Assembly: GCF_005298075.1 (NCBI RefSeq)
Contig: NZ_SZZH01000005.1
Coordinates: forward strand, 124,001-188,000
Direction: 5' to 3'
Origin: Nakamurella flava
GTDB taxonomy: Bacteria; Actinomycetota; Actinomycetes; Mycobacteriales; Nakamurellaceae
DNA: 64,000 nt
A program made the position numbers and the translations under genes. This document shows, in pieces, positions 27,682 to 32,072 of this stretch (positions are counted from its first letter, which is position 1; the number at the start of each line of letters is the position of its first letter). The notes under the pieces are model-generated. The model worked only from the letters and a program-made list of their open reading frames with translations. It was not told where the DNA came from and searched no databases.

Positions 27682-27705
27682 GTTGGGTTCCCAGGATCGG
27701 GGCAT
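27682..27705 (+). promoter_or_regulatory. Possible SigB/SigF-type stress promoter
   Basis: GTTG and GGGCAT separated by 14 bases roughly fit the GTTT/GGGTAT pattern of actinobacterial general-stress sigma factors, 50 bases before the csbD-like gene. Spacing is shorter than typical, so this is a weak call supported mainly by the gene's usual stress control. Confidence 0.3.
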
Positions 27706-27755
27706 TGAGCGGTGCGACGACCGACCGGTCGACGACACGACGGAAGGGAACTGCC

Positions 27756-27941
27756 ATGAGCCTGGGCGACAAGATCAAGAACGCCGCTGAGGAAGCCGTC
27801 GGCAAGGCCAAGGAAGGCATCGGCAACCTGACCAACAACGAGAGCCTCAAGGCGGAGGGCCAGGCCGATCAGGCCGAGGCCAACGCCAAGCAGGCCGGCG
27901 AGAAGGTCAAGGACACCGCGAAGGACGTCTTCGGTTCCTGA
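27756..27941 (+). CDS. CsbD family stress-response protein
   Basis: Small, highly charged, hydrophilic protein of 61 residues with CsbD features: an amphipathic helical start (GDKIKNAAEEAVGKAKEGIGNLTNN), AEGQADQAEA, and a Lys/Asp-rich end. Members accumulate under general stress (SigB control in Bacillus), and their molecular role is unknown. GGAAGGGA is placed 5 bases before the ATG. Single gene, with a likely promoter upstream and a strong terminator 90 bases downstream. Confidence 0.93.
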   Translation: MSLGDKIKNAAEEAVGKAKEGIGNLTNNESLKAEGQADQAEANAKQAGEKVKDTAKDVFGS

Positions 27942-28031
27942 GCCCCACCAGACCGCCCGGCGGGGACACCCCCCTTTCCCCGCCAGGTCGACCGGTCTCG
28001 CACCCCCCGCGCTGACCGGTTCGTTCCACCC

Positions 28032-28066
28032 GGAGAGGCCCGAGCGCTCAGCGTTCGGGCCTCTCC
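28032..28066. terminator. Bidirectional terminator between csbD-like and RT genes
   Basis: GGAGAGGCCCGAGCGCT at 28032-28048 pairs with 28050-28066 with one G-T wobble, giving a long GC-rich hairpin. It lies between the convergent csbD-like and reverse transcriptase genes and probably ends both. Confidence 0.8.
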
Positions 28067-28100
28067 TGTGTCCCGGGGGGGTGTCGAGCGCAGCCGCGAC

Positions 28101-29630
28101 TCAGGCGGTCCAGTCGATCCCGTCGAACTGCTCACGCAGCCGAGCCCCACGCGCCGGGTGCACCGAGGCGACCCAACTGATCCGGCCGAGCAGGTGGGCG
28201 CGGAAATCGGGGTGGCCGTGCCGGTTCGCGGCGGCCGGTCCGGAGCGTCGACAGTCGTGCAGCACGGCTCGCAGCCGGTCGACCTCATCCCGGGCGATGG
28301 CCGGGTGCTCGTTCACGACGACGCCGGTGACGGTCTGCCGTTCGTGCCGGCCCCGCCACCGGGTCTTGGCCTCGTTGATCCGGAAGCGTTCGTCGGCGAC
28401 GATGCGCCCGACGGCCCGGGCGAACGACCGCACGTGTGCTCTCTGGCGGAACGGGCCGGAGAACGTGAGGTCGTCGGCGTAGCGGGTGTACTTCAGGCCG
28501 ACCGCGGCGGCGTAGGCGGCCAGCCGCCGGTCGAGGGTGAAGGCGACGAGGTTGGCCAGCGCCGGTGACGTGGGCGCGCCCTGCGGCAGGTGCGGGACGG
28601 CGAGCCGGCGACGCAGCCGGAACTGCCGCCCCGGGTCGGGTCCGGGCGGCATCGCGGTCAGCACTCGCACCGGGGTCGCCGTCGTGGTCAGTCCGGCCAG
28701 CAGATGGGCGACCGGCTCGGGATAACCGGCCGACCGCAGGACCCCCCAGATTCGGCCCGCGGTGACGGCGGCGAAGAAGTGTTCGAGGTCGAGGGTCAGC
28801 ACTGTTTCCGCGCCGACATGCTCCCGTGCGCCGGTGACCACCGACCGCCCGGACACGAACCCGTGCACCGCCGGGTGGGTGGGGATCAGGTCGAGCAACT
28901 CGTGCAGCACGACCCTCTGGGCGGACAGCAGCCGCGGCCGGGGCGCTTCCAGCAGCCGCGGACCGGATGGGCGGTCCAGCCACTGGTAGCGGTAGTTCGC
29001 GATCTGCTCACTGCGGGCCCGGCGGCCCCGGAGCCGCGTGTCGGCCAGCGCGGTCAGCTGGACGAGATCGACGCCGAGCAGCGCGGCCAAGTCGCCGGCG
29101 TCGTCGAGCGGGGGCGTGGCGAACGGCCGGCGGACCGTCCTCGTCGACGCGACGGGCCAGTGGACCGGACGGGGCACGGGCCGGATCTCCGTCGTCGGCT
29201 CGTCACCGTCGTCGTCGGGGGCGGGGTCGAGCAGGTCGTTGAGCAGGACGCCGACGACCGCCTGCAGCTCGCGCGGCCGGTCCGCCGGGGGACGCGGGTA
29301 GAGCTCGAGGACCTGCTCCACGAGGCGCGGCACCCAGTCGTGCGGCCCGGCGAAGACCACTGCCACCCGGCCGATCAGTCCCGACGCCGTCCAGTCGTCC
29401 GCGTCGGCCAGCAGTGCGCCGGCGATCGCATCGACCAACGCATCGGGACGACCGGGGCGGTCCTCCCGAAACGGGGACGGCCGACCACGGGGACGCTTGC
29501 GCCGCGGCCGGATCGGCGGGGCGGGAGGTCCGCCCGACGGGGGACGCGGCGGACCACCCCGACGGACGAGGCCACCGGGATCGTCACCGGATCGGCGGGG
29601 CGGCGGCCCGGGATCGGGGGTGTCGCTCAT
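28101..29630 (-). CDS. Retron-type reverse transcriptase with N-terminal extension
   Basis: RNA-directed DNA polymerase of 509 residues. Fingers and palm motifs run in order: RT2-like block GFVSGRSVVTGA (257-268), motif A Asp281 (LDLEHFF), QGAPTSP (350-356), catalytic YADD (384-387), INEAKTR (418-424), and the retron-typical VTG box (434-436, VTGVVVN). No maturase X domain or HNH follows, arguing against a group II intron. The first 60 residues are Pro/Arg-rich; residues about 62-135 form a separate helical region of unknown function, and the palm starts near 190. Myxobacterial Mx162-type retron enzymes have a comparable extension, as I recall. The ATG at 29630 is 7 bases after the a2 repeat of the putative msr-msd RNA. 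No separate effector gene adjoins; neighbours are csbD-like and etfD-like. Confidence 0.9.
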   Translation of the reverse strand: MSDTPDPGPPPRRSGDDPGGLVRRGGPPRPPSGGPPAPPIRPRRKRPRGRPSPFREDRPGRPDALVDAIAGALLADADDWTASGLIGRVAVVFAGPHDWVPRLVEQVLELYPRPPADRPRELQAVVGVLLNDLLDPAPDDDGDEPTTEIRPVPRPVHWPVASTRTVRRPFATPPLDDAGDLAALLGVDLVQLTALADTRLRGRRARSEQIANYRYQWLDRPSGPRLLEAPRPRLLSAQRVVLHELLDLIPTHPAVHGFVSGRSVVTGAREHVGAETVLTLDLEHFFAAVTAGRIWGVLRSAGYPEPVAHLLAGLTTTATPVRVLTAMPPGPDPGRQFRLRRRLAVPHLPQGAPTSPALANLVAFTLDRRLAAYAAAVGLKYTRYADDLTFSGPFRQRAHVRSFARAVGRIVADERFRINEAKTRWRGRHERQTVTGVVVNEHPAIARDEVDRLRAVLHDCRRSGPAAANRHGHPDFRAHLLGRISWVASVHPARGARLREQFDGIDWTA

Positions 29631-29637
29631 GAACTGA

Positions 29638-29809
29638 CGGCGGTGGACGACGACCTGTGCTGCTGGGCGGGCCCGCTCCTTCGCGGAGCGCAGCGCCGGG
29701 CCTGCTCGGTCGTGCCTGGTGCGACATGCTCACCCCGGGGGTACCCCGGAGCGTCCGGGACAGGGACGGACGAGCCGTTCCCGATCGGAGTTCTCGTCGT
29801 CCACCGCCG
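29638..29809 (-). ncRNA. Putative retron msr-msd RNA with a1/a2 inverted repeats
   Basis: Immediately upstream of the reverse transcriptase start, CGGCGGTGGACGACGA (minus strand, 29809-29794) and its exact reverse complement (29653-29638) bracket 140 bases. This is the arrangement of the a1 and a2 arms that pair in retron RNAs. Inside, the 5' half can form two short stems (CGTCCG/CGGACG; CCGGGG/CCCCGG), as in msr, and the 3' half a long hairpin around CGCTCC-GCGAA-GGAGCG extended by GGCG/CGCC after an internal loop, as in msd. The a2 arm ends 7 bases before the ATG, and a1 begins 34 bases after the etfD-like stop, so the RNA probably shares a transcript with the RT gene. The branching G and msDNA ends cannot be fixed from sequence alone. 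Confidence 0.75.
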
Positions 29810-29843
29810 CATGCCGACAGTGTGCCGTAACGCACCGACAGCC

Positions 29844-32072
29844 TCAGCTCGTCGGCGAGCCCTTCACCCCGGCGAGCAGCATCTGGGCGACGTCGACGAC
29901 CTCGACGTCGGCGCCCCGGCCCTGCTCCTGGCGGGCGGTCAGCCCGTCGGTGAGCATCACGCGGCAGAACGGGCAACCGGTGGCGATCTGCCCGGCCCCG
30001 GATTCGGGCAGTACCGACAGCGCCTCGTCGGTGCGCTCCAGGTTGATCCGCTTGCCGATCTTCTCCTCCATCCACATCCGCGCGCCACCGGCGCCGCAGC
30101 ACAGGGCGCGGGCCGAGTTGCGCGGCATCTCCGACAGCTGCAGGCCGGAGGCGGCGACCAGCTCGCGGGGCGGGGAGTAGACCTTGTTGTGCCGACCGAG
30201 GTAGCAGGGGTCGTGGTAGGTCACCGCGGGCCCCTGGGAAGCGGAGACGGGCTTCTTGACGACCAGCCGCTTCTCACGGACCAGCCGGTTGAGCAACTGG
30301 GTGTGGTGCACGACCTCGAACGTGCCGCCGAGCTCGCCGTACTCGTTGGCCAGCGTGTTGAAGCAGTGCGGGCAGGTGACGACGATCTTGCGACGCTCCC
30401 GGTCACCGAACGCGGCGTTCAGCGTCTCGACCGTCTCGGAGGCCATCTGCTGGAACAGGAACTCGTTGCCGGCCCGGCGGGCCGGGTCGCCGGTGCAGGT
30501 CTCCCCCGTGCCCAGCACGGCGAACCCGACGGCCGCCATGTCCAGCAGCTCGGCGACGGCCCGGGTGGTCTTCTTCGCGCGGTCGTCGAAGGCGCCGGCG
30601 CAGCCGACGAAGAACAGGTACTCGTGGTCGGAGTCCAGGACGTCCTCGACCACAGGGACCTCGAACGGCAGGTCCTTGGCCCAGGCCATCCGGTCGCGCT
30701 GCTGCGCACCCCACGGGTTGCCCTTGTTCTCCAGGTTCTTGAACAGCCCGGCCAGCTCGGACGGGAACTCCGACTCGATCATGACCTGGTTCCGGCGCAT
30801 GTCGATGATGTGGTCGACGTGCTCGATGTCGACCGGGCACTGCTCCACGCAGGCGCCGCACGTGGTGCAGTCCCACAGCACCTCGGGGTCGATGATGCCG
30901 CCGATCTCGCGGCCCTGGTCGTCGGTCTCGGCCGGGCCGACCAGCGGGCGCTGGGCCTCCAGCATGGCCAACGGATCCGCGTGCGCGAACGCGGCCAGGT
31001 CCGCCTCGCTCAACTTCTCGTCCCCGTCAGGAGTGGTGCCACCGCCGGTGGCCAGGTACGGCGCCTTGGCGTAGGCATGGTCGCGCAAACCCAGGATCAG
31101 CAGCTTCGGCGACAGCGGCTTGGCGGTGTTCCAGGCCGGACACTGCGACTGGCAGCGTCCGCACTCGGTGCAGGTGTTGAAGTCAAGCCAGCCCTTCCAG
31201 CTGAAGTCCTCGACCTTGCCGACACCGAAGGTGTCGGTCTCCGGGTCGGCTTCCTCCAGGTTCAGCACGTCGCCGTTCGACATCATCGGCTTCAGCCCGC
31301 CGTTGGCCGTGCGCTCGGGCTTGCGCTTGAAGTAGATGTTGAAGAAGGCCAGGAACCGGTGCCAGGCGACGCCCATCGTCAGGTTGCGGGCGATCACGAT
31401 GGCCCAGGCCATCGACACCGCGACCTTGACGAGAGCGACGAGTTGAATGGCGATCTCGGCGGTGGTGCCGCCGGGCGGCCAGCTGCCCAGCCAGGTCGAC
31501 AGCGGCGCCGCCCACGTCGGGAACGGCAGGAACCCGGCGGCGGATTCGAAGCCGCGGATCAGCAGGATGCAGACGGCGATGACGGCGATGACCGCTTCGA
31601 CGAAGTACGCCTGGGCGAAGTTGGACCCGGCGAACCGGGACCGCAGACCGGCGCGGCGCGGGTGGGCCCGTTGCCGGACGGCGATGAGGTAGCCGATGCC
31701 GACCAGGGTCAGGACCGCGACCAGCTCGACGAGCAGCCCGTACCAGGCCTGATGACCGAGCCAGGGGATCTCGAACCGGGGGTCGAAGCACTGGCCGACC
31801 GCCTGTACGAGCGTGAGCACGAGGGCGCCGAAGCCGACCATCACCAGCCAGTGCGCGGCCCCGACGATGCCCCACTTGAACATCCGGGTGTGTCCGCCGA
31901 CCTCGACGGCCAACGCCTTCACCCGGGCCTTCACAGCGCCGCCGCGGGTGTGGTCGGGGGCGCCGAGCCGCACCAATCGGTAGATCTTCAGGCTCGCCTG
32001 CGCGAGCATCCCGAAACCGACGACGATGAGGATCACGGCCAGTGGGCCGGTCACCCAGGACAGTGCGGTCAT
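29844..32072 (-). CDS. etfD: EtfD-like membrane Fe-S oxidoreductase (Rv0338c type)
   Basis: Membrane-bound iron-sulfur reductase of 742 residues resembling mycobacterial Rv0338c/EtfD, which passes electrons from electron-transfer flavoprotein (fatty-acid beta-oxidation) to the quinone pool. The first 250 residues hold about five to six membrane helices (NarI-like). Two 4Fe-4S ferredoxin motifs follow (CTECGRCQSQCP; CTTCGACVEQCP), then two CCG cysteine-rich domains (FFVGCAGAFDD; ALCCGAGGARMW) typical of HdrD/GlpC-like subunits. It is a single gene; the retron module starts 34 bases after its stop. The ATG at 32072 leads directly into the first helix. The assignment to EtfD rests on domain order and family memory. 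Confidence 0.85.
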   Translation of the reverse strand: MTALSWVTGPLAVILIVVGFGMLAQASLKIYRLVRLGAPDHTRGGAVKARVKALAVEVGGHTRMFKWGIVGAAHWLVMVGFGALVLTLVQAVGQCFDPRFEIPWLGHQAWYGLLVELVAVLTLVGIGYLIAVRQRAHPRRAGLRSRFAGSNFAQAYFVEAVIAVIAVCILLIRGFESAAGFLPFPTWAAPLSTWLGSWPPGGTTAEIAIQLVALVKVAVSMAWAIVIARNLTMGVAWHRFLAFFNIYFKRKPERTANGGLKPMMSNGDVLNLEEADPETDTFGVGKVEDFSWKGWLDFNTCTECGRCQSQCPAWNTAKPLSPKLLILGLRDHAYAKAPYLATGGGTTPDGDEKLSEADLAAFAHADPLAMLEAQRPLVGPAETDDQGREIGGIIDPEVLWDCTTCGACVEQCPVDIEHVDHIIDMRRNQVMIESEFPSELAGLFKNLENKGNPWGAQQRDRMAWAKDLPFEVPVVEDVLDSDHEYLFFVGCAGAFDDRAKKTTRAVAELLDMAAVGFAVLGTGETCTGDPARRAGNEFLFQQMASETVETLNAAFGDRERRKIVVTCPHCFNTLANEYGELGGTFEVVHHTQLLNRLVREKRLVVKKPVSASQGPAVTYHDPCYLGRHNKVYSPPRELVAASGLQLSEMPRNSARALCCGAGGARMWMEEKIGKRINLERTDEALSVLPESGAGQIATGCPFCRVMLTDGLTARQEQGRGADVEVVDVAQMLLAGVKGSPTS

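What the first reader, a model, noticed from the sequence alone, without database searches (positions are those of the whole stretch)
28101..29809. A probable retron: RT gene preceded by an msr-msd-like RNA with perfect 16-bp a1/a2 arms
Seen directly: a YADD/VTG reverse transcriptase whose ATG is 7 bases from an inverted repeat arm (CGGCGGTGGACGACGA) that pairs exactly with a second arm 140 bases further upstream. Between them are two short stems and one long hairpin, which is the order of msr then msd. Known: retrons have this a1/a2-bounded RNA just upstream of the RT, and many are phage-defence systems. Inference: this is an intact retron making msDNA in a high-GC actinomycete, a group with few studied examples.
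Basis: partly seen in the sequence, partly recalled or inferred. Interest (0 to 1): 0.92.

Follow-up and report, generated by a model that had tools for sequence, protein, structure and literature searches.

The report
Solitary retron in an actinomycete
This is a genuine-looking retron: a bacterial reverse transcriptase gene with its own folded RNA template just upstream, from a little-studied branch found in several bacterial phyla that probably makes a small DNA-RNA hybrid, possibly for defence against viruses.

Summary
The 16-bp arms (29638-29653, 29794-29809) are the longest perfect inverted repeat of span 120-260 in the window. A covariance model from seven same-genus RNAs finds the same RNA beside related reverse transcriptases (RTs) in Actinomycetota, Planctomycetota, Verrucomicrobiota and Pseudomonadota. 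On 27 RNAs, 48 of 52 pairs show changes on both sides and 92.5% of cells pair; shuffles give 63.6%. In 98 class genomes, RT and RNA occur in the same 4. RTs with the RNA fall in one 30-row clade. The RT fits PADLOC's retron models RT_other and RT_outgroup best, so the protein group is already catalogued; the RNA matches nothing in Rfam. No partner gene recurs; many members carry an N-terminal domain of about 65 residues without known family. Production of msDNA and phage defence are inferred, not shown. A DNA mini-hairpin motif in the msd of actinobacterial members is a weaker, new lead; the window's own copy is predicted to fold otherwise there.

The parts
29794..29810 (-). a1 arm of the msr (16 perfect pairs plus a G-U end pair)
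   Evidence: covarying helices 1 and 2
29793..29793 (-). candidate branching (priming) guanosine directly 3' of a1, in GAGA; other loci have GAGC or AAGC here
   Evidence: position read from the sequence; the rule that the priming G lies at the inner end of a1, in motifs such as CAGA and GAGC, is from PMC6868368 passages. The assignment is inference
29754..29789 (-). msr stem-loop 1 (sequence and length vary between relatives)
   Evidence: helices 3 and 4
29733..29751 (-). msr stem-loop 2, CTCCGGGG-UAC-CCCCGGGG; its GGGG/CCCC core is nearly invariant in the family
   Evidence: inner four pairs are G-C in 27, 26, 27 and 27 of 27
29667..29705 (-). msd long hairpin, the presumed template of the msDNA
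   Evidence: helices 7-9; for the window's own fold. Exact msd ends are not known
29683..29689 (-). GCTCCGC in the upper part of the msd hairpin; its cDNA GCGGAGC is of the GCGNAGC type
   Evidence: in the window itself the minimum-energy fold pairs this stretch differently
29637..29653 (-). a2 arm
28101..29630 (-). retron-type reverse transcriptase, 509 aa
29220..29450 (-). N-terminal extension (residues 61-137): domain of about 65 residues, 19 sequences aligned, no known family
28470..28481 (-). YADD catalytic motif (residues 384-387)

Best explanation
An intact, self-contained retron. One transcript carries the msr-msd RNA and the RT. Paired a1/a2 arms present a guanosine (probably 29793) whose 2'-OH primes the RT; the RT copies the long hairpin from the a2 side, giving a DNA hairpin of some tens of bases branched off the msr RNA (msDNA) and held by the RT. 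No separate effector gene recurs in the group, so the simplest model is that the N-terminal domain fused to the RT, or a host protein encoded elsewhere, gives the output, probably against phage. Shown here: anatomy, covariation, close RT-RNA linkage, clade. Inferred from known retrons: priming, msDNA, RT-msDNA complex. Conjecture: role of the N-terminal domain; defence.
For: Arms exact and not chance. Covariation: 21 of 52 pairs compensatory in 7 same-genus RNAs; 48 of 52 pairs, and 357 double-change cells against a mean of 101 in shuffles and 51-68 in slid controls, in 27 RNAs (that alignment was fitted to the model structure, so it leans towards it). RT and RNA in the same 4 of 98 class genomes; RNA in 9 of 394 class genomes, and 8 of 8 loci other than the window's carry the RT on the same strand just downstream, one of them split over two frames. 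Genus: RT in 11 of 17 genomes; RNA in 10 of 17, all RT-positive, the eleventh found in its locus. PADLOC RT_other 548 bits, RT_outgroup 527. NCBIfam retron models 172, 161 and 152 bits against 36 for the Drt2 and group II models (the retron scores are below those models' own cut-offs). The best PDB match is the Ec86 retron RT. Residues A268, H271, G436, V439 and N440 are invariant in 28 aligned RTs.
Against: No experiment. No sigma-70-like promoter or terminator by consensus scan of 27700-30100, so how the RNA is transcribed is unknown; the upstream gene's stop codon ends 33 nt before a1. No recognisable ribosome-binding site precedes the ATG (by eye), so the true start may lie further in. In one same-genus genome (G008) the RNA lies 3.9 kb from the RT, and in L007 the model found no RNA at E up to 1. 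No known effector, so the defence role has no direct support beyond the family; flanking genes look like metabolism and stress genes (by eye), not a defence island.
Confidence: 0.9

Rival explanations
1. A defence-associated RT (DRT/UG type) with a neighbouring non-coding template RNA, such as DRT2, which makes DNA by another route rather than branched msDNA.
For: RT next to a structured RNA, and weak Drt2 similarity (36.5 bits; two Drt2 chains at E 0.005).
Against: Within NCBIfam the best retron model exceeds Drt2 by over 130 bits; an a1/a2-closed RNA with a guanosine at the arm junction and an RT start right after a2 is retron anatomy.
Confidence: 0.04
2. A regulatory RNA (attenuator or leader) of the RT gene, unrelated to priming.
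For: The RNA sits directly upstream of the start codon.
Against: No terminator-like site; the architecture is kept over four phyla with this RT clade; in G008 it lies 3.9 kb from the RT; long closing arms of free sequence are typical of a1/a2.
Confidence: 0.03
3. A decayed retron: conserved anatomy but no longer active in this genome.
For: A related copy, in genome G094, has its RT split over two frames, so decay happens in the family.
Against: In the window the RT frame is open over 509 aa with its motifs present, and the arms are perfect.
Confidence: 0.05

Closest known systems
PADLOC RT_other (PDLC02949) and RT_outgroup (PDLC03740), retron RT models without a typed effector
   Same: Best-scoring models for the window RT and for 9 of the 20 relatives scanned (L001, L004, L005, L007, L009, L010, L034, L109, L111), all of them in the window's clade. 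The profile matches start at window residues 58 and 70, so they take in most of the N-terminal extension.
   Different: These are protein models; no RNA of this group is in Rfam 15. Whether Mestre et al. 2020 (title recalled) gave an RNA for it could not be checked.
Type XIII retrons (PADLOC RT_XIII), which take in myxobacterial relatives
   Same: Third model for the window (308 bits). Myxobacterial retron RTs also have an N-terminal extension, and CAGC or GAGC at the priming site (PMC6868368 passages).
   Different: Best model for 9 other relatives of the 20 scanned, all outside the window's clade. The myxobacterial N-terminal extension does not look like this one (by eye). In those nine loci the RNA model has no hit at the RT's 5' flank at E up to 0.01. 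The window's genus carries the RT at different loci, unlike the vertical inheritance reported for myxobacteria.
Retron Ec86 (Eco1)
   Same: RT core aligns in two stretches that include the A-x-x-H and VTG regions.
   Different: Ec86 has separate effector parts (recalled); none is seen here.

Membership tests
Retron | RT of the retron class with YADD and retron regions X and Y (VTG) | tested here: met
Retron | Non-coding RNA next to the RT closed by complementary a1/a2 ends | tested here: met
Retron | Order msr stems then msd hairpin, covarying in relatives | tested here: met
Retron | Conserved guanosine at the inner end of a1 | tested here: met
   as a sequence feature only: mostly GAGA/GAGC or GAGG in actinobacterial copies, AAGC/AAGA in most others, by eye; L034 and some alignments are unclear there; its use as primer was not tested
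Retron | Branched msDNA (ssDNA joined 2'-5' to RNA) | not testable with these tools
   needs nucleic-acid extraction
Retron | Third part: effector gene or RT-fused effector domain | tested here: inconclusive
   no recurrent partner among 18 loci compared with a simple gene caller; an N-terminal domain of unknown kind in many members, not recognisable in L004, L006, L007, L009 and L034 (by eye)
Retron type XIII | RT scores best with the type XIII model | tested here: not met
   308 bits against 548 for RT_other
DRT/UG reverse transcriptases | RT scores best with a DRT model | tested here: not met
   Drt2 36.5 bits (cut-off 390), Drt3a 13.9 bits (cut-off 200)
Anti-phage defence system | Protects against phage | not testable with these tools
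   needs a plaque assay

The most novel reading that the evidence does not exclude
A one-gene retron class in which the output is carried by an undescribed N-terminal domain fused to the RT, and whose actinobacterial msDNA carries a selected GNA-loop mini-hairpin (cDNA GCGNAGC), a DNA motif reported as unusually heat- and nuclease-resistant. The ssDNA product itself, rather than its RNA template, would then be what selection keeps at the hairpin tip.
Probability: 0.25. Interest if true: 0.72.

Novelty: new member of a known kind. Interest (0 to 1): 0.52.

Why it matters
It gives a tested RNA model for a retron branch that PADLOC lists only as 'other' or 'outgroup', and shows that the branch spans at least four phyla with close RT-RNA linkage. 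A 2019 review states that the experimentally validated retron RTs came only from Gamma- and Deltaproteobacteria, with putative ones from Actinobacteria among others (PMC6868368 passages), so a compact, single-gene, high-GC retron is a useful candidate for ssDNA production in actinomycetes and a test case for how retrons without a partner gene work.

Tried and rejected
Rfam gave only a tRNA in the window at gathering scores and nothing for 29550-29900 even at E 5. A vertical-inheritance reading, as in myxobacteria, is not supported: in 10 same-genus genomes none of the window's flanking genes tested lies in the 14 kb around the RT, and two genus copies (L090, L091) group with plasmid copies from Tsukamurella and Dietzia. 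An empty-site comparison failed: the upstream iron-sulphur gene is in 17 of 17 genus genomes, but in the 16 relatives neither the RT nor the downstream csbD-like or dehydrogenase gene was found within about 1.5 kb of it, so the insertion boundaries are unknown. In one search the csbD query was translated out of frame; one search repeats it in frame. A shared effector was sought by all-against-all comparison of called neighbours in 18 loci. The RT group held 15 loci (my simple caller picked antisense frames over the RT in the window, L094 and L006). The next groups held 4 loci (one made of antisense frames, one MarR-like by eye), 3 loci (two groups) and 2 loci (12 groups); they were not pursued as effectors, among them a gene after the RT in L102 and L103 and a pentapeptide-repeat gene in the two Prauserella loci. 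Pfam and PDB searches with the N-terminal domain gave nothing credible (best PDB E 0.04). RNA-model hits that I judged unconvincing: L030 at 2147-2281 (E 1.7e-4, about 2 kb from the RT, a plain GC hairpin) and 1710-1856, a second hit in L100, L012, L014, L024, L026, L102 and two more in the window, and minus-strand hits over true RNAs; likewise the hits above E 0.01. In the first arm scan four loci lay on the other strand and some arms picked were spurious (L088, L089, L090 among them); searches corrected this. MAFFT alignment A1 misaligned the arms of the Pseudonocardiaceae, so statistics use A2 and A5; alignment A3 (37 matches, weak ones included) was not used for counts.

Full report
Observation. 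Among perfect inverted repeats of at least 12 bp with a span of 120-260 in the window there are two, this one and one of 12 bp. The minimum-energy fold shows the small stems and the long hairpin, but the energy alone is only modestly better than shuffled sequence (z -1.78; 11 of 200 shuffles as good).

The protein. Pfam RVT_1. PADLOC RT_other 548 bits, RT_outgroup 527 bits, then RT_XIII 308 bits. NCBIfam puts three retron models (172, 161, 152 bits) above Drt2 and group II intron models (36 bits), though all are below the models' own cut-offs. Of 17 solved sequences matched at E up to 0.01, 12 are named as retron RTs, Ec86 first; two are called only RNA-directed DNA polymerase; the three weakest are a group II RT and two Drt2 chains. 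In 28 aligned RTs the YADD and the residues A268, H271, G436, V439 and N440 are invariant.

The RNA. Upstream of relatives the arms have other sequences but still pair. In seven same-genus RNAs RNAalifold predicts 52 pairs, 21 with a compensatory change. A covariance model of these seven was run over 91 sources. At E up to 0.001 it hits the 5' flank of the RT in 11 of the 80 loci fetched (L001-L006, L008, L010, L017, L025, L034), with L009 at E 0.016, and one place about 2 kb from the RT in L030, judged unconvincing. It hits all 10 same-genus loci L094-L103; six of these are training sequences, and in L100 the hit lies 3.9 kb from the RT. L007, close kin of L017, was missed, although its fold shows the same parts. 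In loci fetched later it hits L105, L106, L107/L108 (one genome), L109-L112 and the same-genus L090; it misses L113, an RT-Toprim type I-C RT by PADLOC, and L088, a short locus of G008 that does not reach its RNA. On 27 RNAs, 92.5% of cells pair (shuffles 63.6%), 48 of 52 pairs change on both sides, and every helix has such pairs; slid controls fall to 39-47%. This alignment was fitted to the model, which favours the structure; the same-genus alignment A2 was not. The weakest helix (6, two pairs) pairs in 77.8% of cells.

Linkage. In 98 genomes of the class the RT was found in 4 and the RNA in 4, the same 4, the window's own included. In 394 genomes the RNA was found in 9; in the 8 other than the window's the RT follows on the same strand, split over two frames in one. 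I did not search those 394 for RTs lacking the RNA. In the genus the RT is in 11 of 17 genomes and the RNA in 10 of 17, all RT-positive; the eleventh (G001) was missed by the genome search but found in its locus. The own genome has one RT match and one RNA match.

Phylogeny. In a tree of 98 RTs I labelled 29 rows as RNA-positive, counting L009 (E 0.016) and L088 (RNA 3.9 kb away). These 29 and L007 form one clade of 30 (100/98); because of L007 the tool counts two changes of the label. Loci found later (L116-L121) and the split RT of G094 are not in the tree. The 9 scanned relatives best matched by RT_XIII, the one by RT_III-A and the one by RT-Toprim lie outside the clade. The genus is not one clade: L090 and L091 sit with the Tsukamurella and Dietzia plasmid copies. 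With the different loci in each genome this suggests repeated horizontal gain. The genus is unnamed in the tools; Nakamurella is my guess from the one-genus family and is not tested.

Partner. Comparing called neighbours in 17 loci and the window, the RT is the only group found in more than 4 of the 18. Many members carry, in front of the RT core, a domain of about 65 residues with the pattern LAxALAxAxLAGxW...YPxPPxDRPRELA (19 sequences aligned, 14-45% identical to the window's, so the most distant rows are weak); no Pfam or PDB relative is credible. It is not recognisable in L004, L006, L007, L009 and L034 (by eye), so it is not needed for the RNA-RT pair. In the window, residues 1-60 are rich in Pro and Arg and do not align, so the true start may be later.

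How it probably works. By the rule for known retrons (PMC6868368, passages read), the guanosine at the inner end of a1 primes reverse transcription of the hairpin from the a2 side. Here that is 29793, in GAGA; many relatives have GAGC or AAGC. The product would be a short hairpin DNA on the msr RNA. This step and any defence role are inferred.

Tip motif. GCTNCGC, whose cDNA is GCGNAGC, occurs in 25 of 28 actinobacterial RNAs (2.96 expected from shuffles) and in 1 of 8 others (0.4 expected). That scan looked anywhere in the RNA and reports the first match, which in several sequences is beside or away from the tip. In the DNA folds, 19 of the 28 show a GNA triloop at the tip by my reading and 9 fold otherwise, the window among them (loop TTCGC); of the 8 others only L034 shows one. 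The middle base of the loop in the RNA is nearly always C; L105/L115 has G and L103 U. DNA hairpins with GNA loops are reported as very stable and nuclease-resistant (PMC4686876, passages read). Against this reading: shared descent explains part of the conservation, few loop variants exist, other phyla mostly lack it, and the window's own tip is predicted to be re-paired.

Novelty. The protein group has retron models in PADLOC 2.0.0 (2023). The RNA is absent from Rfam 15. Nine full-text searches on retrons listed no paper whose title or abstract start treats this group; of the listed papers I read passages of PMC12548924, PMC8934634, PMC6868368, PMC12262390 and PMC8867640 only. The main classification paper is not in the library and most subscription journals are missing, so I do not claim that it is unpublished. 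I file it as a new member of a known kind.

Noticed in passing
L100:10339-11982 (genome G008): The retron RNA lies 3.9 kb upstream of its RT; between them are a Gp49-like ORF (Pfam below cut-off), an HTH_3 protein and a SecB-like ORF (below cut-off), which together look like a toxin-antitoxin-chaperone set, plus an ABC transporter (by eye).
   Followed up: partly
L002:6159-6773 and L003:6084-6677: A pentapeptide-repeat protein gene follows the RT directly in both Prauserella genomes (Pfam for L002 only).
   Followed up: partly
L119, L107, L108 (genome G094): The RT of this copy is split over two reading frames, yet its RNA still scores well.
   Followed up: no
L102:7478-8494 and L103:8085-9413: Two divergent same-genus copies have related genes (resembling glutathionyl-hydroquinone reductase, by eye) just after the RT.
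   Followed up: no
window 27756-27941, plus strand: Small CsbD-like stress protein gene (by eye) convergent with the RT; a GC-rich hairpin (28066-28032, by eye) lies between them but was not flagged by the terminator scan.
   Followed up: no
L006:4896-5024: This Amycolatopsis RNA is the shortest seen (129 nt), having lost most of the spacer between stem-loop 2 and the msd hairpin (by eye).
   Followed up: no
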